Shown here: piece after piece, positions 1 to 34,241 of the stretch
Position numbering within the stretch: the stretch's first letter is position 1
Layout: each line of letters opens with the position of its first letter
Assembly: GCA_009801085.1 (NCBI GenBank)
Contig: VNWV01000001.1
Coordinates: forward strand, 4,092,001 to 4,156,000
Source: Lasiodiplodia sp. COLG20
Taxonomy: Eukaryota > Ascomycota > Dothideomycetes > Botryosphaeriales > Botryosphaeriaceae
Direction of reading: 5' to 3'
DNA: 64,000 nucleotides
Notes under the pieces: generated by a model
What the model saw: the letters and a program-made list of their open reading frames with translations, nothing else
Database searches by the model: none
What the model was told of the DNA's origin: nothing
Made by a program: the position numbers and the translations under genes

Positions 1-699
1 TCTCTCCGCCAACGTCTTCCGGACATTCCTGCTCAATTCGTCCTGGCGCGGGTGGGCTTTGAAGCATGTGGCTTGGATTGCGGCGCAAGTTATTGGTCTC
101 GTAGACTGGAGTTGTGCTGCCGTCGTTGTCTCCGGGATGTAGATAAATGGCAAATATCTCAGGCGATCTTCACGGAAGTCACGGAGATCTTGGTCGGTAA
201 GCGTAGGAGGGGAATCACTTGATACTGTGGATGAGGAAGTGCTGGGGAATGGAGAGCCGATGACTGGGTTGCTGACAAAGGGCTGAGATGAATGCAAGGA
301 GCTGGGCGGTGTAAAGAGTGTATTTTCTGGATTGCGTCGAGCCATGGAGCTTGAAGTTGAGACCGAGTCGTTTTGAGAGATTGGAGCTATGTCTTGGGTG
401 ACATTTTGTGTTCTTAGCAGCGATACCAGGTCTTCAAGTTTGGATTCCAATTGCGATCGTTTCGATGGTGTGCTTCTCTTCGCGCCCCGTTGACGGACAG
501 ATGTTGAGGGCGTGCATTCTTTCGAGAGACGGTGACACCTTCGACATACAGTCAGCAACCTTCTCTTCACCTCAGAAGCCTCAACCCACCGTTCACACTT
601 CCCAGCTTCGCGCAGCATACATCGGATCTTTGCCCGCACGCAGTTAGTGCAAGACTGACCGTATGGAGCAGGCGTCTTCCGGGTTTCGGTGCTGCTCAT
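1..699 (-). CDS. Zn(II)2Cys6 transcription factor, truncated by the window edge
   Basis: Nuclear DNA-binding regulator, N-terminal part only. Reading leftward from the ATG at 699-697, the protein starts MSSTETRKTPAPYGQSC and carries a zinc binuclear cluster: CTNCVRAKIRC, then CERCHRLSKEC. A 51-bp intron (539-589) interrupts the cluster just before its fifth Cys; removing it gives the CxxC-x6-C...CxxCx6C spacing. A Ser/Thr/Pro-rich linker follows, then the start of what is probably the fungal-specific middle homology region (RDFREDRLRYLPFIYIP). The frame is open to base 1, so the C-terminus is missing. It lies at the edge of the RiPP cluster and is transcribed away from it, so it could regulate it, but nothing in the sequence proves that. 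The class is clear; the target is unknown. Confidence 0.8.
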   Translation of the reverse strand, partial: MSSTETRKTPAPYGQSCTNCVRAKIRCMLREAGKCERWVEASEVKRRLLTVCRRCHRLSKECTPSTSVRQRGAKRSTPSKRSQLESKLEDLVSLLRTQNVTQDIAPISQNDSVSTSSSMARRNPENTLFTPPSSLHSSQPFVSNPVIGSPFPSTSSSTVSSDSPPTLTDQDLRDFREDRLRYLPFIYIPETTTAAQLQSTRPITCAAIQATCFKAHPRQDELSRNVRKTLAER

Positions 700-1651: not shown

Positions 1652-3572
1652 ATGGAGGCTTTCGGTTTGATGTACGAGAAAGTCGTTGGCCTCACGTTTG
1701 CTGCTGCATTAGCTTGGGGAGCAAATGCACAGAACGAGTCATGCCGCTACTTCCCTGGCGACGATCTCTGGCCGTCGGTGGCCGATTGGGCCACACTGAA
1801 CGACACGGTTGGCGGGCGGCTCATCGCCACGGTTCCCCTCGGCGCGCCGTGCCACGATCCGACCTACGATGCCACCGTCTGCAGCACTCTGCAAGCAAGC
1901 TGGACCTCGCCAGAGCTTCACGATGAATCATCCAGCTCGGTCATGGCCCCTTTCTTCGCGAACCACAGTTGCGACCCTTTCACTGCTACCGACACGCCGT
2001 GCACGCTCGGCAATTATGTCCAATACGCGATCAACGTTTCGAGTGCCGATGATGCAATTGCGGGAATCCGGTTCGCAACAGACAAGAATGTTCGCCTGGT
2101 CATCAGAAACACCGGCCACGAGTAAGTGCTCTTCCAACTGCTCAGAATAATGAACACTGACGTGGATTTAAGCTACCTCGGCAAATCTACCGGAGCCGGG
2201 TCCCTGGGTTTGTGGATGCATCATCTGAAAGACATCGAAATCATTGATTACTCGGATGCTCACTTCACGGGCAAAGCAATCAAGCTCGGCGCCGGTGTCC
2301 AAGCCGGAGAGGCTGCAGATGCAGCAGACGCCCAGGGCCTGGTCACCATTGGAGGAAATTCCCCTACTGTCGGAATTGCAGGTATGATCAAGACGTTGGC
2401 AAGGACTCTGCAAAAGCTAATCTTGTGAAGGTGGATATTCTCAAGGCGGAGGGCATACGCCTCTTGCCTCAAAGTACGGCATGGCAGCCGACCAAGTATT
2501 GGAATGGGAAGTAGTAGATGGGCTGGGCAATGTCCATATCGCAAACCGCCAAAACAACACCGACATCTACTGGGCAATGTCCGGCGGCGGCGGCAGCACT
2601 TACGGCGTGGCTCTGGCAATGACGGCTAAGCTCTACGAAGACATACCAGTGTCCGGAGCTAACATCAGCTTCGCTTCCGCTAATATTACAGCAGACAGCT
2701 TTTGGAATGCGATTGAGAAATGGTCAGAGGTGGTCTCTCCGCTTCTCGACAAGGGCATTGTTGCGAATTCGTACGCAATGAACACAAGTTTCGCGATCGC
2801 ACCAATCACCGCCCCAGGGATCACTGCAGACGAGCTATCCTCTCTGCTTCAGCCGTACCTCAGCCACCTCGATGGTCTTGGGATCCCATACCAGCATTCC
2901 GTCGTCCAATTTCCAGGATATCTTGCTCAACACGATGCCATGACGCCGGTACAGGGAGTCGGCACTACTCAGGGCGGCAGCTGGATTATTCCAAGAGCCG
3001 TCGTGCGGGAACGTAACGATGAGTTGACAGCGGCTTTCCGGAGCGTGGCGAACGACGGGGGGATAGTTGTCAATCTTCATTTGAGGCCCTCGAAAGAGGT
3101 TGCTGGCGATGTCGATAACGCGGTGCTGCCAGCATGGAGAGACGCGGATATGGCGTCTGTCATTGCGACGTCAGTGCAACCTTTGCCTATTACCCATGTT
3201 TTTATGCTGACACCTCTTTTATGCAGACTGTGGAACTTTACTGCCCCGTGGTCGGAAATGGTGGCCGACCAGGAAAAAATAACGAACAAATACGTTCCGA
3301 TGTTCAGCTCATTGGCACCAGAGTCTGGTACTTATATGAACGAGGTATGCTTGTTGAAACACCCAATTCATCCCAGATTCCAAATTGAATAACTGTTCCA
3401 GGCGGACTACAACCAACCTGATTGGCAAACTGCTTTTTACGGAGCGAACTACGACAGACTGAGGAGTGTCAAAGCAAAATATGACCCGCATGACGTCTTT
3501 TACGCAACTACAGCTGTGGGAAGTGATGAATGGGTTATTCATGAAGGTGGACGGCTATGCAAGGTTAATTAA
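1652..3572 (+). CDS. Secreted FAD-linked oxidase, berberine-bridge-enzyme-like
   Basis: Flavin-dependent oxidase of the PCMH/BBE family, expected to oxidise or dehydrogenate a small molecule in the secretory pathway or outside the cell. Five exons: introns 2122-2172, 2382-2430, 3170-3226 and 3345-3401. Splicing restores [17 protein letters not shown] (FAD-binding core, with the His used for flavin attachment in this family), then [12 protein letters not shown], and at the C-terminus the BBE domain ([18 protein letters not shown]). The N-terminus has a hydrophobic signal peptide ending near GANAQ. Where bicovalent BBEs have a flavin-binding Cys, this protein reads [10 protein letters not shown], so at most one covalent link is expected. 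Start at 1652; Met at 1670 is an alternative. It is the first gene of the putative RiPP cluster, so late oxidation of the peptide is a reasonable guess. Confidence 0.88.
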
Positions 3573-4381
3573 GCGCACACAAAGAAGGAGGATTACGAGA
3601 GCAGCTGCAAACGTAAATGCCGCAAAGCCGCGGTACTGACTGCCAACACCCACAACTTCGAGTCTTGTTTAACGAACGAACTACGTATTCTGAACTTTTC
3701 GTTCCAAGATTGCCCACTTTGCATTGCAATTGGGTTGAAGTGACAAATGCAGAGTGTCGGGACTTCGTAAAACATACGAATACGGCACTTTACGATCTTC
3801 CAATTTAATCGCGCTACATTCCACTTTCACACGTCACGACCGAGAAGAACCGCCGTCAAGATGATCATTGTAATTCTTGACCAGCGTATGAGTAGCACTC
3901 GCCCCACATCCGCGTGTGCATGTGGGGCACGCTGCCACATTTGGGGGAAAAGTGGTAGGCTGTTGCACCCTTCCTCTTCGATAGAGCAAATCACAACCTG
4001 AACAAATACTTTAAGTGCAGGGTGCTAATGCTTTTAAGGTAACCCTGGGTCTCACTTCATTACAAACGACTAAGCGAGTCGACGCCTTACCCTTCGTTTC
4101 GAGCTGCCCTAGCAGCCACCAAGGAAGGTCAAGAACAGTTTCTTAAGCGTGTAAGAGTCACCTCAGAAGAATTAACCCGAAGAAACAACTAATCAGAATT
4201 GTGAAATATTTCGTGCATTGAGAGCAGGTATACATTTGGCGACATAGTAGAATTCGGTGTGCTGTCTACGCGTAACGGATAGGTGAGCTTGGGGCCAGCT
4301 ATCTGATTTATACACCGAGATGTCAAGGTTTTAATCAGAGCTCAGGTTTACCCCTTGCTCTATGTACGCCATACTATTGAA
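3573..4381. other. Intergenic region between convergent genes
   Basis: Terminator-side spacer of the FAD oxidase (plus) and the lipocalin-like gene (minus). No coding potential recognised. Confidence 0.5.
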
Positions 4382-5562
4382 TCAAAAGTTGAGCCCATAA
4401 GTGAACTCGTCGAAGAACGCTTTCCCCTCAAAAGTCTCATTGCGACCCTCAATGCCCCCCTTTGCCAGCCCGGTGCCCCGAGTATACACCACCCTATCAT
4501 ACGTAAGGAACTCCTTGGTGACATTGACGACGAACGTCTCCCCATTGCCCAGATCGAACCTCGACTCGACGCCCGAAACGGAAGCCAAGCCCCCGGCAGG
4601 CGGCCAGGTAGCATTGAGACCCCAGGGCCTCGTCACGACGGCGTCCGCCTCGCAGCTGATCAGCATGATCTCTCCATCCTTGGCAATGTAGCTCCGGTGG
4701 TATTCGACGTCGCTGTAGTCGAGCAGGTCGTACCACACGAGCGAATACGGGCCGAGGCGGGCGTGGCCCCAGTCCCAGAACTTGGGGCTCTTGAGCACCG
4801 TCTTGTCGCCCCAGTTCTTGTCGTGGTAGCCTGTGCCGGTGAACTTGAGGGCGGTACCGTTGATGGTCAGGTCGGCCGAGACGTCGGCGTCCGGGAGCGC
4901 GTTGGACCAGAAGAAGCGCGGGAGGTGCATCTGCGTCTGGCCGGGCACGTTGGCGGAGCAGGGGTAGTGCGCGGGTGCGCGCTGGGGACACGTGCGATGA
5001 GCGTGGAGAGACTCTTGGAAGGCTTCAGATATCTGTGACTTACCGACTTGAAGTTGAGCGTGCCGTGGATGCCGAGTTCGGGGGAGTCGAACGTTACGTC
5101 GTACTCCACGTTCTCGGCCTCCAGGTTCGTTCCCTTGAAGCTGGCCCCGGCTCCCTTCCAATGGCCCTCCACGCCGTGAGGTCCGTTGCTGATGACGGCT
5201 CCGCCCGGCGCGAGTACCTGGTTCCAGTATGTCGTCCCATTCGCAAACACGCCGGACACTTCGACGGCCAACGGCTGGGAGGTGCCGATGTCGCCGGCAT
5301 TGTAGAAAACAATGTTCACGGCGGAGCCGTCTGACGAGGACATGGCATCGAACCACCAGTAGTCATACGATGTCGTGTTGGCAGACGTCCGCATCTTGAA
5401 ACCATCGAGGTTGCCGGGAACGGAGAGGGTTTCAATCTGGACGGTGCCGTTGTGGAAGGCGGGTTCAAGGAAGATTTTGTCTTTATGAACTGGCCCGGCT
5501 TGGGCAAAAGAAGGTAGCAACAGTGACATCGTTGATGTCGCTGCAAAGAGGAGTGAATGCAT
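4382..5562 (-). CDS. Secreted CrtC/AttH-fold (Diels-Alderase-like) protein
   Basis: Two exons with an intron at 4982-5043. The ATG at 5562-5560 opens a signal peptide (MHSLLFAATSTMSLLLPSFA). The mature protein has the double-lipocalin look of the hydroxyneurosporene-synthase-like family: EPAFHNGTVQIETLSVPG near the start, YDYWWFDAM, GVEGHWKG, and in the second half YHDKNWGD followed by FWDWGHARLGPYSLVWYDLL. Fungal members include pericyclases (decalin-forming Diels-Alderases) and other cyclases or isomerases. Length is about 370 residues, normal for the family. A TATA-like stretch (minus-strand GGATATAAGA, about 5658-5667) lies roughly 100 bp upstream. Pericyclase relatives usually sit beside a PKS-NRPS; here the neighbour is a RiPP precursor and no PKS is present, so the substrate may be the peptide. 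That is inference. Confidence 0.8.
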
Positions 5563-6244
5563 ATTGGGAAACGAGCGGTAAGGTGCAGATCTTTGAAGCG
5601 AATGTGTAGTCTCTGCGAGATGATGCTGACAGGAGTACAGTATGAGGGCGCACCGCGTCTTATATCCCCCCTGCCGGCTCCTGGGTGCTAGGAAGTCCAC
5701 GTGTTTCGCTACGCCCGTTCTGCTCGGAAAGCGGTTGGTTATGCGTGCCGATGCAAAGCACTGACCTCGCAGAGTCCTTGCCTGTTGACACACCGGCTTC
5801 TCACACTCAACTCACAGCTTAGTCCATGGATCGAAGTAGTCGCCGTACCGTACTTGCTGCAAGTTTATTGGCGGTGCATATGGAAACCCGTATGTAGGTG
5901 GGTAGAGTTGCCGGATGTGGTATGGCCAAAAACTTAGCGCATATTCGTATTATCTCGTATTCGCAACACCATTTTGGCTTACATACTCGGGCAAAGGCGT
6001 CCTCCTCAGTGAAGCGGAGGGTGAAGAAATATCATCAATAGCCTCGATCCTGGTACATCTGTAGATTTCAAGACATTTATCTCACTATTGTAGTTGCAAT
6101 GCAAGTACGAAGTTTGTTAACGGAAGAATTGTTTGAAAATAGACTAATCACTTAATCCACAAGTTCTTAGACTTTCTCCCGTCGAAATGCCCGGTCTGCC
6201 GCCCGGACCACAAGTTGATCGCCAAGTAACTGGACCTGGGCCGT
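5563..6244. other. Intergenic region
   Basis: Promoter side of the lipocalin-like gene and 3' side of the RiPP precursor gene. No coding feature recognised. Confidence 0.5.
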
Positions 6245-7248
6245 CTACTCAGAGTCGGCGGTCGCCTCGTCCCGCTTGAAGTTGTACCAGGCATACTTCT
6301 GATCATCGACAGCGTCAGGGGTAGCGGCCTCAGCGGCACTGTTCTCCTCCCTCTTGAAGTTGTACCAGGCGTACTTCTGGTCATCGACCGCATCAGGAGC
6401 CGCCTCAGCCGCACTCTCCTCGTCGCGCTTGAAGTTGTACCAGGCGTATTTCTGATCGTCAACAGCATCGGGGGAGACCTCGGCGGCGCTTTCTTCGCCC
6501 CTCTTGAAGTTGTACCACGCGTACTTCTGGTCATCAACGGCGTCGGCGGCAGGCTGGGCCGCACTTCCCTCCTCCCTCTTGAAGTTGTACCAGGCATACT
6601 TCTGATCATCGACGGCAGCAGGGGCAGCAGCCTCGGCAGCACTCTCCTCACCACGCTTAAAGTTGTACCAAGCGTACTTCTGGTCGTCAACAGCGTCGGC
6701 GGCGGGCTGAGCCGGGGCACTCTCTTCATCGCGCTTGAAGTTGTACCAAGCGTACTTCTGGTCGTCAACCGCGTCGGCCTTAGCCTCGTCGCGCTTGAAA
6801 TTGTACCAGGCGTACTTTTGGTCATCAACAGCGTCAGGGGCAGCCTTAGCCTGAGCGGCGCTCTCCTCGTCACGCTTGAAGTTATACCAGGCGTACTTCT
6901 GATCGTCGACCGCGTCGGGTTTGGCTTCGTCACGCTTGAAGTTGTACCAAGCGTACTTTTGGTCGTCGACGGCATCGGCCTTGGCCTCATCCCGTTTGAA
7001 GTTGTACCAGGCGTATTTCTGGTCGTCGACGGCATTGGGCTCGGCGGCAGCAGCCTCGGCGGCATCGCGGGCGTCGATGTTTTGCACCGCAGCGTCGGAA
7101 TCAGCAACGGGTGCGGGCACGGCTGCGGAAAGTCTCAGTGATGTGAACTTCAACCAGGGCAACTTGGATACACACCGATAGGAGTGGCCGCAGCCATGGC
7201 GGTCAAAAGCATGACCACAGCGGTCGGGGCGGAGATCTTGGACTGCAT
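6245..7248 (-). CDS. RiPP precursor peptide with 11 Kex2-bounded core repeats (dikaritin/UstA-type)
   Basis: Secreted precursor of a ribosomally made, modified peptide. Two exons (7177-7248 plus base 7176, and 6245-7122); the 53-bp intron 7123-7175 falls at the end of the signal peptide MQSKISAPTAVVMLLTAMAA. Spliced length is 316 residues: signal, a short Ala-rich leader (VPAPVADSDAAVQNIDARDA), then 11 tandem units to the stop. Every unit holds AVDDQKYAWYNFKR unchanged, followed by an acidic/Ala spacer of 6-13 residues. Lys-Arg closes every unit, as expected for Kex2 processing in the Golgi, which would free 11 equal peptides. The likely core is YAWYNF, with AVDDQ(K) as recognition sequence; the exact core ends are inferred. 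Architecture (signal peptide, repeats, KR sites, adjacent UstYa genes) matches the ustiloxin/phomopsin/asperipin class of fungal cyclic RiPPs. I cannot say from memory whether this core has been reported. Confidence 0.93.
6248..7033 (-). repeat. Coding tandem repeat: 11 units of 20-27 codons
   Basis: Unit lengths in translation order (right to left) are 20, 20, 27, 20, 26, 26, 25, 25, 25, 26 and 22 codons. The 14-residue block is identical in all units at the protein level, while its codons differ: core Ala is written GCC, GCT or GCG, and Gln as CAG or CAA. Spacers differ in sequence and length (DEAKA, DEESAAQAKAAP, GEESAAEVSP, EENSAAEAATP and others). Confidence 0.95.
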
Positions 7249-8171
7249 GATCGAGGATCCAATCGGCAACGAATGAAACAAGTGTTCTGCTGGTTTCCTT
7301 CGTCCAGCGCAGGCATTGTGCCTTTATATATGTGTTGATCAGTACACCGTCGGCCTCTTCTGTTGCATCATTCCTTGACACTCCGCCAGAGGAGGAGCAC
7401 TCTCTCCGAGACGATTTGGGCAGCTCGATTCCAGCCTGAATGGCGCAAGTCATGCAATGAATGGCGACTCGCAGTTGGTGTTGATACTTCAGTCCTACTG
7501 TCACCGGCTTCTGCCAAGATGTGTTGCGGAATGCACCCTTAGTCGTGAAGCGAGCGTGACGTACTTGGTTGGGCAGGTCCTTGACTCGACTCCGGTCAAG
7601 CCTATTGGATCTGCGTGCTTGACACTGTAGTACCGTACAAGCTTTCTCGGATAGCAGAATCTCCGAAGTGGCACCTAATGTTGGCTAGTCGCTAGTAGCC
7701 GCTATACACGATGAAGATGTCGTGCAGCGTCGTATCTACAGGAATACGCCGCGCGATTAATACACCGATCACCGAAGAGAAGACGCTATGGCCAGGGTCC
7801 ATCTTATCGGCTGCAACAACACGAAGGTTCATGCCGACACACAAATTGAAACTTTTGCTAGGATTATTATTCACCTGGTTGACGCAAGAGCGCCCGCGCG
7901 ATAGGTGCCCGAAGGGGATGGGCCACGGCTGAATCTGAAACTGTCTATGAACTTAGATCCAACGACAGACGTCGTGCATGATTGCCTAAGGAGCGTCAAG
8001 ACAAGACTTTCAGTTTTCATCCGGCTGGCTAGAGGTCACCGAGGGTCCTGTCCACCTACCTCGTCGAAACCACCTGCTTTCCTGCCGGCACACACTTTGA
8101 TCTATCTGTCAGGTACGGACGTATTCTTCCCCACTTCTCCATCCCACTCTGTTGCTGACCTCACCAGAAAT
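7249..8171. other. Bidirectional promoter region, RiPP precursor / UstYa-like gene
   Basis: Divergent 0.9-kb spacer between the precursor (minus) and the first UstYa-family gene (plus), suggesting shared control. Besides the TATA box near 7325 no defined site was identified. A short open frame on the minus strand (7692-7874) has no convincing family resemblance. Confidence 0.5.
7321..7330 (-). promoter_or_regulatory. Probable TATA box of the RiPP precursor gene
   Basis: Minus-strand TATATAAAGG, about 73-82 bp upstream of the precursor ATG. Position and sequence fit a core promoter; no transcription start is known. Confidence 0.5.
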
Positions 8172-8984
8172 ATGTCTCCCACCTTCTCAAAGCAAATAGA
8201 GTGGCTCCGAGGAATGTGGCCTCCAACTTGGTCAGGGAGCTACTCTCGTGCAGCTGGGGAAGAGCAACCTTTGGCACATGACAGGCCGTGGCACGAAGAC
8301 AACATGGGGAGAGGACCAGAAACTCCCGACGCCGAGATCAAGCACGAAGGGAGCTACGAAGACATGGCACCTGGTGCGGAGCAGCAGCAGCAGCATCAGC
8401 GGCGGAGGCGATGGCAATCAAAATGGCAACACGCATGGCGGCTCCTCGTCGTCCTCCTAGCGCTGTGGGGCACATTCGACCTTTGCCACCGCGCGGCACG
8501 ACCGCTTCTCTCCCGCCTGGCGCACCCACACATCTCAGACGCATCATTCTGGTGCCGCAAAGCGTGCCCACAGATAGCAGTCGAGGCGAGGCGGCAGGGA
8601 TGCGTGTTCGACGAGCTGGAGAACCGCTTCACCAAGCCCGAATGCATCAACGCGGACATCACTGACGAGTTCACGCGGGCTGGGCCTGGCCCGGACGGAT
8701 CCTGGTTCTACAGGACGGAGATCGACGGCAATATGACGACGGTCAACGTCTCGCAGGTGATCGAGCTGATCGAGCCTGGCAGGATGGTGTGGCAGACGAC
8801 CAGGTGGCATCTGCTGCACTGCATGTTTGTTTGGCGGAAGATCTCGCTGAGCCGTTTTGATGGGACGCTGTTGCCGATGAATAGGGAGGAGGAGGCAACG
8901 CATGGGGAACATTGTGAGAGGCTGGTGGCGAGCTTCCTTGTTGGGGGTGAGATGGATGATTATTTGGCGCATACGGAGTACTGA
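8172..8984 (+). CDS. UstYa-family (DUF3328) oxidase, copy 1
   Basis: Single-exon, about 270 residues, membrane-anchored oxidative cyclase of the UstYa family. The start at 8172 (MSPTFSKQIEWLRGMWPPTW) is chosen because upstream codons look non-coding. A polar, Gln/Arg-rich N-terminus leads to one transmembrane helix (LLVVLLALWGTFDL), giving a type II topology with a lumenal catalytic part. This has CPQIAVEARRQGCVFDELEN and P-x-x-C further on, then the two family motifs: RWHLLHCMF (HxxHC) and THGEHC (HxxHC). Family members close macrocycles on RiPP cores, for example ether links to Tyr in ustiloxin-type peptides. It is divergently paired with the precursor across 0.9 kb. Which bond it makes is unknown. 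Confidence 0.85.
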   Translation: MSPTFSKQIEWLRGMWPPTWSGSYSRAAGEEQPLAHDRPWHEDNMGRGPETPDAEIKHEGSYEDMAPGAEQQQQHQRRRRWQSKWQHAWRLLVVLLALWGTFDLCHRAARPLLSRLAHPHISDASFWCRKACPQIAVEARRQGCVFDELENRFTKPECINADITDEFTRAGPGPDGSWFYRTEIDGNMTTVNVSQVIELIEPGRMVWQTTRWHLLHCMFVWRKISLSRFDGTLLPMNREEEATHGEHCERLVASFLVGGEMDDYLAHTEY

Positions 8985-9302
8985 GATGTCTGACTGAGAA
9001 ATGCTCCTTTCGGCCTTGTTCGCTTGTGTAATATAGTTCTGTCAAATGAAAGGGAATTCAACTCACTTCTTTCTGAAAATCATCTTTGCCTTGCTCCTTG
9101 TCATACGTCCTTCAGCACCTCAGAACCAACAGTGTGAAGATGATCGTGAAGCTTGTACCCTACATCATCGTTTGATTCACTGTTCTTGCTCACGATCAAA
9201 TGTTCATCTGTTCAAATTGCCATCGCCCTCCCATTTTCTCCTGATCATGAAGACACGCCCTCAACTATGATACAAGCAAACTATATACATCAGACAGCAA
9301 CC
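8985..9302. other. Short spacer between convergent UstYa-family genes
   Basis: 3' flanks of copies 1 and 2. Nothing else seen. Confidence 0.5.
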
Positions 9303-10049
9303 TCACTGATGCCCATGCCAAGTCGGCATCACCCCATGCGTCTCCGGATCCGCCTTCACATCCCTCCACGAATAATCGCACGTCGGAAACTTGAGATGCA
9401 ACAAGCTATTGAAAAACCACGGATCGACATCATACCGCGGCATCATATTGTTACAGTGCTGCCCGTGGTGCCAATCCGCCGTCCAATTGTCCATCGGCCG
9501 ATCAAACATGACGGAACGCATGTACTTCTTCATGATCAGCGAGCAGTGCGCCATGTGCTGGTACCACGGCACCCACGCCTCGCGCACCTCGCCGGCGCGG
9601 CACGCCGCCACGAACGCCGCGTCCGTGTCGCTGCTGTCGTTGGCCGTCCGCGAGAAGGTCCAGTCCGCGTGCCCGTCCCACTCCGCGCCTAGCTCCTCGT
9701 CGTAGCACGCGGCCGGCACCCACGCGAAGTTGTGCATCTCGAAGCGGCAGCCAAGCGCGCGGGCTTCGGCGGGGGTGGAGCCGCATTGGTTGATGGGGAG
9801 GCGGGAGGAGGCGTTCCAGCGGATGGTCAGGTGCCCGGCGCGGGTGAGGGCCGCGATGGCGGCCATGGTGAGGAGGAGTAGGATGCCCACCGAGAGTTTT
9901 GCGAAGTGCCGTCTGAGGAAGCTGCGGCGTGGAGAGGGCGCTATCCTCATCGGCTTGTCGGCGAACCCATCTTCTTCGAAGGCGTCATCGCTGTTGTTGG
10001 AAGCTCTGGAGAGACTTGTATATTTGAACGGTTGTGATAACGACAGCAT
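9303..10049 (-). CDS. UstYa-family (DUF3328) oxidase, copy 2
   Basis: Single exon, 248 residues from the ATG at 10049-10047 (MLSLSQPFKYTSLSRASNNS); an upstream in-frame Met at 10136 would add 29 residues. One transmembrane helix (LSVGILLLLTMAAIAAL) follows a basic stretch. The lumenal part has CGSTPAEARALGCRFEMHNF and AWVPAACYDEEL, then the paired motifs WYQHMAHC and WHHGQHC. The GCxF...WxPxxC segment is shared with the copy at 12187-12990, so these two form one subtype. Transcribed convergently towards copy 1. Expected to act with the other UstYa proteins on the Kex2-released peptides in the Golgi lumen. Confidence 0.87.
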   Translation of the reverse strand: MLSLSQPFKYTSLSRASNNSDDAFEEDGFADKPMRIAPSPRRSFLRRHFAKLSVGILLLLTMAAIAALTRAGHLTIRWNASSRLPINQCGSTPAEARALGCRFEMHNFAWVPAACYDEELGAEWDGHADWTFSRTANDSSDTDAAFVAACRAGEVREAWVPWYQHMAHCSLIMKKYMRSVMFDRPMDNWTADWHHGQHCNNMMPRYDVDPWFFNSLLHLKFPTCDYSWRDVKADPETHGVMPTWHGHQ

Positions 10050-10824
10050 CGTTGTGGCGGGATTTTCCAAAACGAATGAAGAGCAGTTGATTTGCAGTGA
10101 TGAATGGTTGGTGTTGGAGGCGGAAGCTTCCGCCAAGGAAGAAGAAGTGTTTGCTGTGTTGCAATTGCAATGGACCTGGAGCCTTACACTGAGTCACTTG
10201 TTGATTCACTTCTCCCAAGAGCAAAGTCTGCGGTCGCGGCCGGTGTTTCTGAATTGCGAAGCCTCAGCTCTTGCGCGATGTCATCCGTATTCGGGTACCA
10301 ACAGCCAAGTCAGTAGCTCGGCGTCTGACTCGAAGTTAATAATGTCTACAACAACAACAATGATTCACACGCCCTGTCTGCCTCCGCACGCGACATTGCG
10401 TGATGAACTACTCAACTCGACGACTAGTGCTTCGGTCTCACTGAATCTGCGCGATACCATCTACTTAGTCATGGATGAACTCTGACGTCAGCGGCGGGCG
10501 ATCGTATGAATTGCCTGTTACAGTGGCTAGTGCGTTAGCGCGGCGCCAAGTGGGCCGGTCCCTACTTTTGGGTTCACTACAATAGTAGATGACAAGTGTA
10601 GACCGCGGGATTTTAGTGATTGACTGAGTAGTGGATCGTTTAATGCTTCCTTAAACGAACTGGTTACATCTGCAAAATCCAAGGTGGTCAAAATACAAGG
10701 TTTAGCACTATACATGGACAGTCTGTCCATACTCCAGCACACAAAGAATTGAGTCATGATTAACTTTCTAAAGCGAAGTGACCGGTGTACAAATTCCCAC
10801 CACTTAGAATACAGAGACATTTGT
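10050..10824. other. Intergenic region
   Basis: Upstream of UstYa copy 2 and downstream of copy 3. Open frames here are antisense or low-complexity and were not accepted. Confidence 0.45.
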
Positions 10825-11704
10825 CTACAATGGGGCGTCGAAAGCAATGATCCACCTCTCATCCACAAGTCTGCGCTCCTCAGCCCACTGAACGAGCTCG
10901 TTGTAGCTCCGACACACGTGAGTATGTCCGTAGCCATCGGTGCCCTTCGTGTTATCGTGCTCTGTGCGCCCTTCAAGGGTCGTGTCGCCGTTGCACAGAA
11001 TGGCCTGGCGCAAGTAGTCGAAACAGTGGTTCGTGTGCACGGAGTGATGGCCATCTTGAACCTTGTTCTCCTGCCCATTCGCGCCGTAACGCACCACTTG
11101 ATCGTAGGCGTCCATGACATAGTACAAGCAGTGGAGTTGGTGTGCCCATGATACCTTCCACATCGGCACTCCTTCCGAGTTGATGAAGGGTTCGCTAAGT
11201 TTGTCGTACTTCTCGTGATCAGGAATATGCACATTTCCTCCGCCCTCTGCGTATCGATCCATGAGAATGCCGTTTTTACTCGCGGAGATAAGGGAGAACT
11301 CACTTGGAAGAAGATCCTGCCAGCGCTCTCTGACAATCTTCGCCTCTTCCGAAGATGTATAGTTGAGGGTGTACTCAGCCATGCCTGAAGAGAATTTGAT
11401 GTGCTCCTGAGAGACTATAGGAGGCAACTTCAGTAAACACATTTTTTGAACCGGGTTGTGAAATTCTATACTTACATTTGGGAGCGACATTGCTGATGTC
11501 ACCACCAAAGTCGGGCTTTGCATTGCTGAACCGAATCAAAACGACCATTGAGACCCAGTTTATCATGAGACTGGTCGCAAGTGCTCCAATCAACACCCAT
11601 CGCAACACACGGCTCCCATGCCTTTGGCGACTGCTGATCAAAAGGGGTTCCTGAGGCAGGAAAGTGCTCGTTTCGGAACACTCATCATCCTGAGAATGAC
11701 CCAT
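10825..11704 (-). CDS. UstYa-family (DUF3328) oxidase, copy 3 (classic UstYa type)
   Basis: Two exons; intron 11415-11475 (61 bp) joins VAPK to FSQEHIKF. Start at 11704 (MGHSQDDECSETSTFLPQEP); an upstream Met at 11776 is possible. A cytosolic tail, one transmembrane helix (VLIGALATSLMINWVSMVVL) and a lumenal domain follow. It has the textbook UstYa signature: GVPMWKVSWAHQLHCLYYV (first HxxHC) and HTNHCFDYLRQAILCNGDTT (second HxxHC plus the conserved Cys), then the C-terminal Trp/Tyr segment. About 273 residues, normal for the family. Of the four copies this is the closest to the canonical short form, so it is the best candidate for the first ring closure. That assignment is inference. Confidence 0.9.
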
Positions 11705-12186
11705 GGTATGGATCAAGCTGGGCAAAAATTCGAAAGGTATTAGGAAGCGTTCAAAGGAAATCGAAGTCCGGTTCATGGCTGCACTATCTCAGTGAGCCCG
11801 TTTAAGAGCCTCATGGCATGTCGGTGATTGCCGCTTAGTTTAGCTTCCATCGAGTATTAGGGAGAATGCAAGCGTGACGGCCCGACCATACGAGGCAGGC
11901 GCATGTGGAGACTTGCACACAGATAGTCGTCATGAAATAGCTGAACCTTATCGAAATGAATGCTTGATGTATCTTGGAACGGGTTGGGCAGTCTTGGGGT
12001 GCTTGCGATTCGCATGCGCTAATTTGCCACTAGTTGCCGAGTACAACGTACACCAGCGATTCAAGCGCTGCTGAGTGCAACACCTTTGCGGAAGCCTCCT
12101 ATAGTGCGCATATTCAACTTCAATCTCACAAATTTCTGCTTTTCTGTTCTATTGGGTCGCCTACACAACATCAGCTTACTTGCATC
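11705..12186. other. Divergent promoter region, UstYa copies 3 and 4
   Basis: About 480 bp between divergent genes, so probably a shared promoter. No specific operator recognised. Confidence 0.45.
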
Positions 12187-12990
12187 ATGAAATCAACCAC
12201 GTCAAATGGCGAACGCCAGAAAGAGGAGCATTTCAGACCTTCCGATGCTTCAGGCTCATTCTCGGATCTTGAAGAAGGCCCGTCTTCAGAGCAGGAAAAG
12301 CTTCTCCAAACCGATCCTCTTTCTGAAAGCCATCGACCTTCGAGGAGCTTCTTTAATTCCCTGAAGTGCACAGGCACAGCATGGGTAGCCGTCCCGGTCT
12401 TGATCGTTGCTCTCATTGCCGCCGTCTTCTCAATAGCAACAGCGGCGTCTACAGAGCTCAGTGCATCTCCAAAGACAGCAGCAGCATCATTCAAGCAATT
12501 CCCCATCAAGACCGACGAATTGGGCGACTACATCGAATGCCCGACAGAGTCTCCCGACGCCGCCCAAAAAGCAGGGTGCACCTTCGACGTGCTCCTCTAC
12601 GGTTGGCTCCCGGACGCGTGCTTCGACGCCGACATGTACCGCGACATCACTGCGGACGCCGACTACGGCTTCTACTTGGACCGTGAGGGGCAGCGGCCCG
12701 TCGCCATGTCGGAGCTGATGAAAGGCGACTATGTGCAGTACCCGGAAGCCTACGTCTCGGTCGAAGAGCACTGGCAGCACTGCACCTACATGCTCAACTC
12801 CTCCCTCCGGTTCCGTGCCAAGGAGCCGCCCACCGCCCTGAATCTGCACCTCGATCAGCATCACATCGGTCACTGTCTGAAGTTCTTGTTGGATCCGGCT
12901 ACCACGAGGTCGCTGGAGGTGACGCAGACACGAGCGCTGTTCAGCGCTAAGCGACGATGCTACCTTCGTCAGCATGCTCAGTTCGGCTGA
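12187..12990 (+). CDS. UstYa-family (DUF3328) oxidase, copy 4
   Basis: Single exon, 267 residues, start at 12187 (MKSTTSNGERQKEEHFRPSD). Ser/Glu-rich cytosolic tail, transmembrane helix (WVAVPVLIVALIAAVFSIAT), then a lumenal domain with KAGCTFDVLLYGWLPDACFD (same GCxF...WxPxxC block as copy 2) and the paired motifs VEEHWQHCTYM and HHIGHCLKFLL. The last 30 residues or so are less family-like. Divergent from copy 3. A diversified set of UstYa proteins in one cluster is known for phomopsin-type clusters, where several oxidations are made on one core. Confidence 0.86.
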   Translation: MKSTTSNGERQKEEHFRPSDASGSFSDLEEGPSSEQEKLLQTDPLSESHRPSRSFFNSLKCTGTAWVAVPVLIVALIAAVFSIATAASTELSASPKTAAASFKQFPIKTDELGDYIECPTESPDAAQKAGCTFDVLLYGWLPDACFDADMYRDITADADYGFYLDREGQRPVAMSELMKGDYVQYPEAYVSVEEHWQHCTYMLNSSLRFRAKEPPTALNLHLDQHHIGHCLKFLLDPATTRSLEVTQTRALFSAKRRCYLRQHAQFG

Positions 12991-13917
12991 GTCAGTTCGG
13001 TTGGGTCGGAAAGGGAGAGAAAGAAGCAAACATGAGCCTTGGGCTCAGTGCTTCGTCTATAGGGCACACTAGACGAGTCAGCCCTATGCTGGCGGAGTCG
13101 ATGTCTGGATTCGGCGTCAGGAGTCAAGAGTCCGTAGCAAATGGGGCAAAGTGCATTGTGCGCAAGGCCGTGATTCAGCTTTAGAGCAGCGAACAATTCA
13201 TTCGTATAGACTAGACCCTGATATCTTCGGCGTATTCGTCATGTCAACGGTGTTCAGGAACCGTCTCGTTAGCATGACGTCAGGTGTGCTGGGCACGCCA
13301 TTTCTCGTATAGATACAAGCAATGATGTGGAGTACGGCCGGTAGATAAGCTTTGATAGATTAGCTCTTTGCCGAAGATCGGCAACCACCGGCTATCAACG
13401 ATGACCGGAGAAACCTTGTCAGGTACCCGTTTCGGAAGAGGAAAGGCTTGGTTACCGATTTCCCTGGATTCGAACAGCCGTGTTCGATCGCGGTACGCAG
13501 CGTTGTGGTGGCATTCGTATCGGGACGTGAATAAGGTTTAGTAACCGAAGTACTAGTCTCACCAGCAGCGGCTAAAATATCGCACCGGCACTCGACTCAT
13601 GGGCTGAGACCATGAAGAAGTCGTGAGAACCTCAAACAATGGTTTGCACAGGGTGGATCAGAATCTTTCATTGGAGCGATTTCGACTTGAGCTTTCGTTT
13701 CTCGAATGTTCGTGAGTTATTATCACCGTGAGCTCGTGATAAATATCCCTCCAATCAAAGCACGTAGTTTGCGATTCAAGCCACCGACCACTTCAAACTT
13801 GGAGAATTCCACTTCGTCCAATCTATGGGTATTCCTGCTGGACCCCGTCAACTTGTCTATCTCTTCCCTCACCATCCAGTTCCCACGTTGCTGTAGTCGA
13901 GAAGACGAGATACCGCA
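12991..13917. other. Intergenic region
   Basis: Between UstYa copy 4 and the MFS transporter, both on the plus strand. No gene, tRNA or repeat recognised; contains the transporter promoter. Confidence 0.45.
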
Positions 13918-15591
13918 ATGCACGGTGTCGATAGTGCATATGACCTGGAGAGCTCGAGCACGGCACTTTGCCATGTCGAAAAGACAAACCACAATGTTGG
14001 AAAAACGGGGTTCTTTGCATTTAGCTACTCTATACTTGGGTGAGTAGCCTTTTCAACAGCCATAGCGGTGTTATCGAGTAGTTCGCCTTACTGTCGCCAG
14101 ATTGCAACTCGTTTGGAGCACAGTGTTCGCTCGGGGAACCGTAAGACAAATAAAGTAGCCCCTTGGCATGCACCGCTCTTGCTAACGGCGATGACTTGTA
14201 GGACCACCTGATTTCGCTCGGTGTTCCTGAGTATCTCACACCAGTAGCGTGGATCGCGGCCCCTTTCTGCGGAATGGTCCTGCAGCCTGTCTTTGGGCTG
14301 CTCAGTGACCGTTGCAGCACTCGATGGGGTCAGAGGAAACCATTTATCCTCTGCGGTGCTGTGGCTGTGGCGTTGTCTATCACAGGTCTTGCCTGGGCCG
14401 AGAACACAGCGTTGTTTCTCCGAAAGCTATCTGGGCCACCAGAAATCAGCGGCGACTCTGAGCGGGTGCTCCGATGTGTCTTGGCATTCATCTGGATCTG
14501 GGTCCTTAACATCTCCATCCAGTCGGCACAGATGGGCATCAGAACGTCCATTGTGGAGTCATGCTCGCGTGACCAGCAAGCTCCAGCTACGGCGTGGAGT
14601 GGTGTTGCTGTGGCTGTCGGTAATCTATGCGGCTATCTCCTCAACACGCTGGAGCTCAGCTGCATTCCCATTTTTGGTGCAATGACACCATTCCAGATCT
14701 TGTGCGCGATAGTGTCGAGCCTTCTCGTATTCCTGACTGCCTTGACCTGCATTCTTGCTCCACGGCCAAGCATCACTCTGCCTTCCGGGAAGAACCTTCG
14801 CCTTCGCCATCTTGCCAGAGAGGCGGTGCAGACTATCACCGGTGAGCTAGGCCCACCTTCGAAGGTCATCAGGCAGCTTTTTGAAATCCAATTCTACTCC
14901 TGGATGGCCTGGTTTCCCGTCATGTACTACCAAACCAGGTAAGTTGTATAACGAGCCCCCGGTTCTGATGCTTACTGACGGAATCCCCAGATACGTTGCC
15001 GACCTTTACTATTCCAGAATGTATTCCGAACATCCGTGGATGGGGGTGAGTGCGCTTGGCAGTGTTCATGATGACAGCGTGCGCATGGCGTCGGGAGCGG
15101 CTGTGGGGTTCGCCGTGCTCTCTTTGGTCACAGGCGCCCTCGTACCATACATCTACCAGAACTCGATTCACGGCCCTCGAAGGCGTGAAGGAGCTGTTCT
15201 CGGCAAACTTCAGGAGCTCACTTTGCCAAATCTGTGGATTATCAGCCACTCATTTTTCGCGGCAACAATGCTGTGTACCCTTTTCGTTCGGTCTGAGGGC
15301 GCAGGCATGCTAATTATCACAATGTTGGGCTTTCCTTGGGCCTTGACTGCCTGGATTCCTCACGCCATCTTGGGCATGGAAATTGCTGAGAGGGAGCTTA
15401 GTTCTGTAGGCATATTGACGGGCTTGCATAACTCGTTTGTCTCCGCCCCCCAGATGATATCTGCAGCGGTTTGTACGGTAGTCTTTAAGGTCTCTCCATT
15501 AATTGGCAACCACGAGCCAATTGTAGTGGTCCTTAGACTAGGAGCGTTTCCCGCCTTGGTAGCAGCGTATCTTACGCTTAAGCTAAGATGA
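13918..15591 (+). CDS. MFS transporter of the sucrose/GPH type
   Basis: Membrane transporter of about 499 residues resembling the plant/fungal sucrose:proton symporter group. Four exons, introns 14040-14100, 14141-14201 and 14939-14990. The 40-nt second exon restores the family block GLQLVWSTVFARGTDHLISL, followed by SLGVPEYLTPVAWIAAPFCG, LLSDRCSTRWGQRKPFIL (the loop 2-3 motif RxxxxGxRxP) and WAENTAL. The start at 13918 (MHGVDSAYDLESSS) is the first in-frame ATG after the spacer. Hydrophobic helices continue to the C-terminus. Next to the UstYa genes it may export the mature peptide, or it may simply import a disaccharide; the family usually carries sugars, so the cluster role is uncertain. 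Confidence 0.83.
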
Positions 15592-33013: not shown

Positions 33014-34241
33014 TGGTCTCAGCGAAGCTCCTTACACTCCTGGCGGGCGCCACTGCCGCCTTGGCCCAGGTCGAGATTGAAACACGTACGCTCGACGAGA
33101 TCCATGAAGCAGCCCTGAAGGAGGGTGGCGTTGTCACCTGCTGGCATGGAGGGTAAGTTTACTAAACCAAAGGCGTGACAGTTTGCTGACTCCGTCCCAG
33201 AGATGAAAAGAACAGCAGGGATAGCCTCAAGGCGGCATTCGAGGAACGCTTCCCTGGAATGACTCTCAATGTCACTGTTGATCTCTCCAAGTACCATGAT
33301 GGAAACGTAAGACACTTCAATCCAGGATAGACCTGCCGCAGCTAACACTTGAAATCCAGCTCGACCAGCAAATCCAAGACAAGAACGTCTACGTAGACAG
33401 CGTCATCCTCCAAACCCTTCACGATTACCCGCGCTGGAAGGAGGATGGGTCCATTCTGCAATACAAGCCTCTGGGTTGGGATCAGGTGTACGACGAATTC
33501 AAAGACCCCGACGGATACTACAGTGGACTGTTCGTCATCGCTTGGTCGAACGTGTGGAACACGGCCAAAACCGACGTTTCCATCAAGGAGTACGCCGACT
33601 TCCTGAAGCCAGAGCTCAAGGACAAGATCGTCCTCACCTACCCCAACGACGACGATGCCGTGCTGTATGCCTTCGACCTGATGTACGTTTATCTCCCCTC
33701 CCTCCCTCCCACCCCGTGTCTCCCCACTAACACGAACTCAACCTTTAGCCTCCAAAACGTCGGCTACGCCTGGTTCGACTCGCTCCTCGCCCAGAACCCG
33801 CGCTGGGTCCGCGGCACGCGCACGCCCTCGACCGTCGTCGGCGACAACTCGACGCAGTGGGCCGCCACCTTCACCAGCTCGCGCGGCCTCAACGCCGCCG
33901 CGCCCTTCGCGGTGTCGTTCCCCGAGACGTCCGCGCCGTTCGTGTCCTGGCCGCAGACGGGCGCCATCCTCAAGGACGCGCCGCACCCAGAGAGTGCGAA
34001 GCTGCTGCACTCGTTTATACTGTCTGAGGAGTGGCAGAACGCGACGGGCGGCTGGAGCGCGCGGAAGGACCTCTCGCCCCAGCCGGCGGCGTATCCGGAT
34101 ATTTTTGATATGCCTGGCACGAATGTGACGGCGTTTGGGGATTGGATGGCGGATCGTGCGAATGTGGAGAGGGTGAGGTTTTGGTTTGAGAGTAAAATTG
34201 GGACGGCGCAGGGGTTGAGCCCGTTGGAGGATGACCTATAG
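33014..34241 (+). CDS. Secreted bacterial-type (ABC) solute-binding protein
   Basis: Extracellular protein of about 353 residues resembling bacterial periplasmic iron/small-molecule binding proteins. Four exons: introns 33153-33200, 33307-33359 and 33683-33748. Signal peptide MVSAKLLTLLAGATAALAQ, then ALKEGGVVTCWHGGDEKNSR, LKAAFEERFPGMTLNVTVDL, DSVILQTLHDYPRW, YYSGLFVIAWSNVWNTAK, IVLTYPNDDDAVLYAFDLI, GTRTPSTVVGDNSTQ and a C-terminal lobe SAKLLHSFILSEEWQNATGG. The two-lobed order fits type II binding proteins. Fungi lack the matching ABC importer, and none is encoded here, so the role is unknown; perhaps ligand scavenging. The family is bacterial in origin, and transfer long ago is likely because introns are present. 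Confidence 0.82.

What the first reader, a model, noticed from the sequence alone, without database searches (positions are those of the whole stretch)
1652..15591. A UstYa-type RiPP gene cluster: repeat precursor plus four DUF3328 oxidases
The window encodes a secreted precursor with 11 KR-terminated repeats flanked by four UstYa-family proteins, a FAD oxidase, a lipocalin-like cyclase and a transporter. This is the layout of fungal cyclic RiPP (dikaritin-type) clusters, but with a core I do not recognise and no tyrosinase, methyltransferase or peptidase gene in sight. The product may be a new cyclic peptide.
Basis: partly seen in the sequence, partly recalled or inferred. Interest (0 to 1): 0.95.

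Follow-up and report, generated by a model that had tools for sequence, protein, structure and literature searches.

The report
Fungal modified-peptide cluster with unknown product
A fungus close to the plant-associated genus Lasiodiplodia carries a gene cluster that very probably cuts one secreted protein into eleven copies of the same small aromatic peptide and oxidises them into an undescribed compound; the kind of pathway is known, but the peptide and several of its enzymes are unusual.

Summary
Between them lie a precursor with 11 identical units AVDDQKYAWYNFKR, a Diels-Alderase/AsqO-type (lipocalin-like) protein and four ORFs with paired HxxHC motifs. Across the units all 44 base differences from the consensus are silent. 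The best reading is a Kex2-processed, DUF3328-type (dikaritin-like) RiPP cluster. Corrections: only one of the four oxidases passes the Pfam UstYa cut-off; the other three belong to a cysteine-rich HxxHC branch whose 32 database relatives carry no Pfam domain; all four lie on one side of the precursor; the six-residue core is an inference. Two protein searches found no relative of the precursor, and no paper in the held library has the unit. Such clusters are common in fungi and this genome has at least three more repeat precursors beside UstYa genes, so the class is not new. The core, the cysteine-rich trio and the Diels-Alderase-type neighbour make it a new variant. Product, linkage and function are unknown.

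The parts
1..699 (-). Putative fungal transcription factor (N-terminal part; continues left of the window), divergent from the FAD oxidase; possible cluster regulator
   Evidence: ORF; no Pfam hit at E<=0.1 for its 254-aa N-terminal part; cysteine-rich N-terminus resembling a zinc-cluster factor (by eye)
1652..3572 (+). FAD-linked oxidase of the VAO/berberine-bridge type, 587 aa, exons 1652-2121, 2173-2381, 2431-3344, 3402-3572; probably secreted
   Evidence: model; Pfam FAD_binding_4 66.9 bits and BBE 54.2 bits; best solved relative MtVAO615, E 4.8e-116
4382..5562 (-). Diels-Alderase/AsqO-type (lipocalin-like) protein, 372 aa, exons 5562-5044, 4981-4382
   Evidence: model; DA_N 164.3 bits, AsqO_C 147 bits; weak match to CghA and Fsa2
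6245..7248 (-). RiPP precursor (Kex2-processed repeat protein), 316 aa, exons 7248-7176 and 7122-6245, signal-like hydrophobic N-terminus
6272..7033 (-). Array of 11 identical units AVDDQKYAWYNFKR separated by variable acidic/Ala-rich spacers of 6-13 residues
   Evidence: DNA-level repeat also
8172..8984 (+). U1: HxxHC-pair protein (HLLHC/HGEHC), hydrophobic segment before the motifs; cysteine-rich branch
   Evidence: 90% to P0001, L. theobromae LTHEOB_43
9303..10049 (-). U2: HxxHC-pair protein (HMAHC/HGQHC), cysteine-rich branch
   Evidence: 94% to P0002 of L. hormozganensis
10825..11704 (-). U3: canonical UstYa/DUF3328 oxidase (HQLHC/HTNHC), exons 11704-11476, 11414-10825
   Evidence: model; PF11807 94.8 bits, cut-off 25
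12187..12990 (+). U4: HxxHC-pair protein (HWQHC/HIGHC), cysteine-rich branch
13918..15591 (+). MFS_2-type transporter, 499 aa, exons 13918-14039, 14101-14140, 14202-14938, 14991-15591
   Evidence: MFS_2 34.5 bits, cut-off 27; a homologue (27% identity over 453 columns) sits beside another repeat precursor in the same genome

Best explanation
It is a Kex2-processed, DUF3328-type RiPP gene cluster. The precursor enters the secretory pathway, Kex2 cuts after each KR, and a carboxypeptidase trims KR, giving eleven copies of a peptide ending in the constant segment AVDDQKYAWYNF. In the ER/Golgi lumen the membrane-anchored oxidases (one canonical UstYa, three of a cysteine-rich branch), probably copper enzymes, oxidise and cross-link the aromatic residues of YAWYNF. 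The FAD oxidase and the Diels-Alderase/AsqO-type protein carry out further oxidation and ring closure or rearrangement. Host peptidases remove the AVDDQ(K) part and the MFS protein exports the product. Shown: gene content, repeat conservation, motifs, domains, co-occurrence of U1 and U2 homologues in other fungi. Inferred: processing, copper use, order of steps, type of bond, cyclic product, core limits, and that the FAD and Diels-Alderase-type genes belong to the same pathway.
For: Eleven units identical in protein but all different in DNA, each ending in the Kex2 site KR. Hydrophobic N-terminal segments on the precursor and FAD oxidase, a weaker one on the Diels-Alderase-type protein, and a hydrophobic segment before the HxxHC domain on U1-U4 (hydropathy only), which would put them in the same lumen. 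Four HxxHC pairs within 5 kb against 0 in 60 simulations; U3 passes PF11807. [quoted passage not shown] In the AlphaFold model of U2 the motifs lie at the starts of two helices, 162-181 and 193-202, after a long N-terminal helix 40-75. The layout has a second instance in the genome: contig 36 has a repeat precursor with 7 copies of KVKVD, a PF11807 match, two proteins of the cysteine-rich branch and a homologous MFS. U1 and U2 homologues carry consecutive tags MPH_09221/MPH_09222 in Macrophomina, and those of Pseudocercospora are listed on contigs of the same length, so probably the same contig.
Against: No expression or mass data. Three of four oxidases fail the Pfam UstYa cut-off, and the profile comparison with canonical UstYa gives only 17% probability, although it lines up both HxxHC motifs (E 0.0014). 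No precursor relative was found in the protein database although it holds Lasiodiplodia and Macrophomina proteins. No S41 peptidase is in the window to remove the AVDDQ part. Membership of the FAD and Diels-Alderase-type genes rests on position: neither had a homologue at E<=1e-4 in the other fetched UstYa loci.
Confidence: 0.8

Rival explanations
1. The precursor yields an unmodified linear secreted peptide (signal, pheromone-like or surface peptide), and the oxidase genes are neighbours serving another product.
For: Many KEPs give linear peptides, and in Umemura's survey only 22% of KEP genes are accompanied by DUF3328 genes (abstract and passages of PMC7329392). The whole 14-residue unit is conserved, not only six residues. 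The spacers hold X-Ala dipeptides such as EA, KA, DA, which in pheromone precursors are trimmed by STE13.
Against: The precursor lies between the FAD oxidase and the four HxxHC genes and shares a divergent upstream region with U1 (7249-8171). In that survey almost all KEPs annotated as mating factors or pheromones, with three exceptions, lacked DUF3328 neighbours (abstract). The X-Ala dipeptides are one residue out of register with the KR cut and are followed by VDDQK (by eye).
Confidence: 0.12
2. Two adjoining sets of genes: a core RiPP set (precursor, U1-U4, MFS) and a separate small-molecule pair (FAD oxidase plus Diels-Alderase/AsqO-type gene). This is compatible with the RiPP reading and only narrows it, so its odds overlap with it.
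For: Neither gene has a homologue at the other fetched UstYa loci. Relatives CghA and Fsa2 act in non-ribosomal or polyketide-type pathways (recalled). The other two AsqO_C genes of the genome are not at UstYa loci.
Against: No PKS or NRPS domain came up in the Pfam-scanned ORFs of the window (not all ORFs scanned). The Diels-Alderase-type gene is the immediate neighbour of the precursor on the same strand.
Confidence: 0.25
3. A degenerate or silent cluster with no product.
For: No expression data. A related locus on contig 57 matches the contig 34 repeat precursor only over a short, diverged stretch (76 columns, 55%), so precursors may decay.
Against: All frames here are open after GT-AG introns. 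All base changes in the units are silent, which points to selection on the peptide. U1 and U2 are 90-94% identical to Lasiodiplodia proteins.
Confidence: 0.05

Closest known systems
Dikaritins / ust-RiPS: ustiloxin, phomopsin, asperipin-2a
   Same: Secreted multi-copy precursor cut by Kex2 with DUF3328 oxidases next to it (passages of PMC7329392 and PMC9233826). Asperipin-2a is a bicyclic peptide linked through tyrosine side chains (PMC9233826 passage); its aromatic six-residue core is recalled.
   Different: Core segment YAWYNF is none of YAIG, YVIG, YVIP. Three of four oxidases are of a cysteine-rich branch; a VAO-type FAD oxidase and a Diels-Alderase/AsqO-type gene are present; no tyrosinase or S41 peptidase in the window.
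Victorin cluster (Cochliobolus victoriae)
   Same: Multi-core precursor, likely Kex2-processed, in a dothideomycete, cyclised between a C-terminal Phe side chain and an internal Leu (PMC9233826 passage); the unit here also ends in Phe before KR.
   Different: Other core; victorin is described there as chlorinated and likely processed by cluster peptidases. Halogenation cannot be judged here.
CctR and DUF3328 copper enzymes
   Same: N-terminal membrane segment and HxxHC(x)nHxxHC in a helical domain (PMC12435403; here).
   Different: U1, U2, U4 and 30 relatives have three invariant Cys before the motif. In six canonical members of this genome, U3 included, the invariant Cys outside the motifs come after it.
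CghA / Fsa2 Diels-Alderases and AsqO
   Same: DA_N and AsqO_C domains over cut-off.
   Different: Here with a hydrophobic N-terminus (possibly secreted) and beside a RiPP precursor; sequence similarity to solved members is weak (E 1e-4 to 2e-3).

Membership tests
Kex2-processed repeat protein (KEP) | N-terminal signal peptide | tested here: inconclusive
   Most hydrophobic 19-residue stretch at residues 10-28; no signal-peptide predictor available
Kex2-processed repeat protein (KEP) | Repeated near-identical units separated by dibasic sites | tested here: met
   11 of 11 identical 14-residue units, each ending KR
Dikaritin / DUF3328-type RiPP cluster | At least one DUF3328 (PF11807) gene close to the precursor | tested here: met
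   U3 94.8 bits, cut-off 25, about 3.6 kb from the precursor
Dikaritin / DUF3328-type RiPP cluster | Product: core peptide cross-linked through side chains | not testable with these tools
   No mass or NMR data
Dikaritin, ustiloxin/phomopsin type | YxIx core and a tyrosinase in the cluster | tested here: not met
   Core segment YAWYNF; none of the 40 tyrosinase matches listed for the genome is in the window
UstYa family (PF11807), U1/U2/U4 | Match over the Pfam cut-off | tested here: not met
   17.2 bits (cut-off 25), none, none
UstYa family (PF11807), U1/U2/U4 | Two HxxHC motifs after a membrane segment | tested here: met
   29 of 32 homologues keep both motifs; P0019 and P0029 lack one or both, being short or incomplete, and P0024 has lost the first
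Copper-dependent DUF3328 enzyme | Two copper ions per monomer at the HxxHC pair | not testable with these tools
   Reported for CctR (PMC12435403)
Diels-Alderase/AsqO-type protein | DA_N and AsqO_C domains | tested here: met
   164.3 and 147 bits, both over cut-off 27

The most novel reading that the evidence does not exclude
A fungal RiPP class in which a trio of cysteine-rich HxxHC oxidases, distinct from PF11807, builds links between Tyr, Trp and Phe side chains of YAWYNF and a lipocalin-like Diels-Alderase/AsqO-type enzyme then shapes the oxidised peptide: the first ribosomal peptide pathway with a Diels-Alderase-type enzyme, with relatives of the U1/U2 oxidase pair in Colletotrichum, Pseudocercospora and Macrophomina.
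Probability: 0.2. Interest if true: 0.75.

Novelty: new variant of a known kind. Interest (0 to 1): 0.5.

Why it matters
A 2025 paper on CctR defines DUF3328 proteins as copper enzymes (PMC12435403). A compact cluster with four HxxHC proteins, three of them from a branch that Pfam does not name, plus one constant substrate repeated 11 times, is a clean system to ask which oxidase makes which bond. If the Diels-Alderase-type gene acts on the peptide, it would join a small-molecule cyclase to ribosomal peptide chemistry. Co-occurring U1/U2 relatives suggest an overlooked peptide family in plant-associated fungi.
Full report
What was checked. The window is part of a 43.5 Mb fungal assembly in 88 contigs. 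The closest relatives of two cluster proteins are from Lasiodiplodia (90% to L. theobromae LTHEOB_43 for U1, 94% to L. hormozganensis for U2), then Macrophomina (66% and 69%), so the host is very probably a Lasiodiplodia or a near relative (inference).

The precursor. It has a hydrophobic N-terminus, a short leader, and 11 units AVDDQKYAWYNFKR separated by acidic, alanine-rich spacers of 6 to 13 residues. All 11 units differ in DNA and none in protein: the 44 substitutions against the consensus are all synonymous. The spacers vary in length and sequence. So the whole 14-residue unit, not only YAWYNF, appears to be under selection. KR at the end of each unit fits Kex2. Which residues stay in the product cannot be read from the sequence; the aromatic segment YAWYNF is the likeliest substrate of oxidases. 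Two searches of a database of about 5.8 billion proteins found no relative (limits under Tried and rejected), and no paper in the held library has the unit or the parts searched.

The oxidases. All four proteins have a hydrophobic segment followed by two HxxHC motifs whose starts are 30 to 35 residues apart. The pair occurs nowhere else in the window and in 0 of 60 simulated sequences; single HxxHC matches were 11 against 4.85 expected. U3 is a canonical UstYa protein (94.8 bits). U1 scores 17.2 bits, below the cut-off of 25, and U2 and U4 give nothing. The three form a branch with 32 database relatives, none with a precomputed Pfam domain (only the 7993 candidates sharing most words were scored). 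In 33 aligned sequences (30 of the 32 relatives plus U1, U2, U4) three cysteines before the motifs are invariant. In a set of six canonical sequences of this genome the invariant cysteines outside the motifs come after them. Of the 32 relatives 29 keep both HxxHC motifs. Remote homology to canonical UstYa is suggested by P0027, a U1 relative that matches U3 at E 9e-6 (an E-value for a database of only four sequences), and by a profile alignment that matches both motifs, E 0.0014 but probability only 17%.

Conservation elsewhere. U1 and U2 relatives occur in Macrophomina with consecutive tags (MPH_09221, MPH_09222) and in Pseudocercospora fijiensis on contigs listed with the same length, so probably one contig; Colletotrichum higginsianum has one of each kind in the database, from different annotations. 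In the own genome the branch has at least 7 members at four places: three here, two on contig 36 and two far apart on contig 7. Contig 36 also holds a repeat precursor with 7 copies of KVKVD, a PF11807 match and an MFS homologous to the one here. That second instance of the layout supports precursor, both oxidase kinds and MFS as one module.

The two odd partners. The FAD oxidase is a VAO/berberine-bridge-type protein close to MtVAO615. The Diels-Alderase/AsqO-type protein has both domains over cut-off; the genome has three AsqO_C matches. Neither has a homologue at the other fetched UstYa loci. Their membership rests on position and on hydrophobic N-termini; for the Diels-Alderase-type protein this is weak, since with an 11-residue window its most hydrophobic stretch lies elsewhere. 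No listed paper joined DUF3328 with a Diels-Alderase (25 of 31 listed) or with berberine bridge, AsqO or CghA (9 of 10 listed).

Mechanism. CctR, a DUF3328 protein, is a homodimeric binuclear copper enzyme using the HxxHC pair, with its catalytic domain proposed to be luminal (PMC12435403, parts 1 and 2 of 3 read). By analogy the four proteins here would oxidise the peptide in the Golgi after or during Kex2 cutting. The AlphaFold model of U2 (mean pLDDT 82.6) puts both motifs at the starts of two successive helices, in line with that, but metal binding was not tested. On the same contig the nearest S41 match is about 0.43 Mb away and the nearest tyrosinase match about 0.9 Mb. A passage of PMC12048977 says that clusters without tyrosinase or peptidase are not uncommon, with asperipin-2a as the example, so this does not speak against a cyclic product.

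How new. Umemura counted 7878 KEPs in 1345 of 1461 strains, 22% with DUF3328 genes nearby (PMC7329392 abstract), so the kind is common. This genome alone has repeat precursors beside UstYa matches on contigs 34, 36 and 21. What is unusual here is the core, the cysteine-rich trio and the Diels-Alderase-type neighbour. I file it as a new variant of a known kind. Product, bonds and function are unknown; the Botryosphaeriaceae include plant pathogens and latent endophytes (PMC8336260 abstract passages), so a role toward plants is possible, but nothing here shows one.

Noticed in passing
L016 (contig 36, 82001-92000) 4935-9746: Second cluster with the same module: repeat precursor with 7 KVKVD copies, a canonical UstYa match, a cysteine-rich HxxHC protein and an MFS homologue; a further protein of that branch at contig 36:81.5 kb.
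   Followed up: partly
L013 (contig 34, 9001-19000) 587-1333 and L014 (contig 57, 22001-32000): Repeat precursor with about 10 copies of AYVWASSAKAKR-type units beside three UstYa matches; contig 57 carries a 73-80% identical copy of the region in which only a short diverged match to the repeat protein was found.
   Followed up: partly
L017 (contig 21, 26001-36000) 1883-2806 and 3420-4640: Repeat precursor with 10 copies of QFMIDAYEELD near UstYa exons and an HxxHC-pair ORF without the GCxF cysteine motif.
   Followed up: no
L011/L012 (contig 7, 290001-306000): Several UstYa matches and a cysteine-rich HxxHC gene with no repeat precursor found in 280-316 kb by the simple scan.
   Followed up: partly
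window 40429-63998: PDR-type ABC transporter, two HET-domain proteins, sulfatase, transcription factor, FAD monooxygenase-type protein, P450 and TRI12-type pump: perhaps a second, unrelated metabolite region.
   Followed up: no
window 33486-34241: ORF with a bacterial-type solute-binding domain (SBP_bac_6, 31 bits, cut-off 24.6) in a fungal genome.
   Followed up: no
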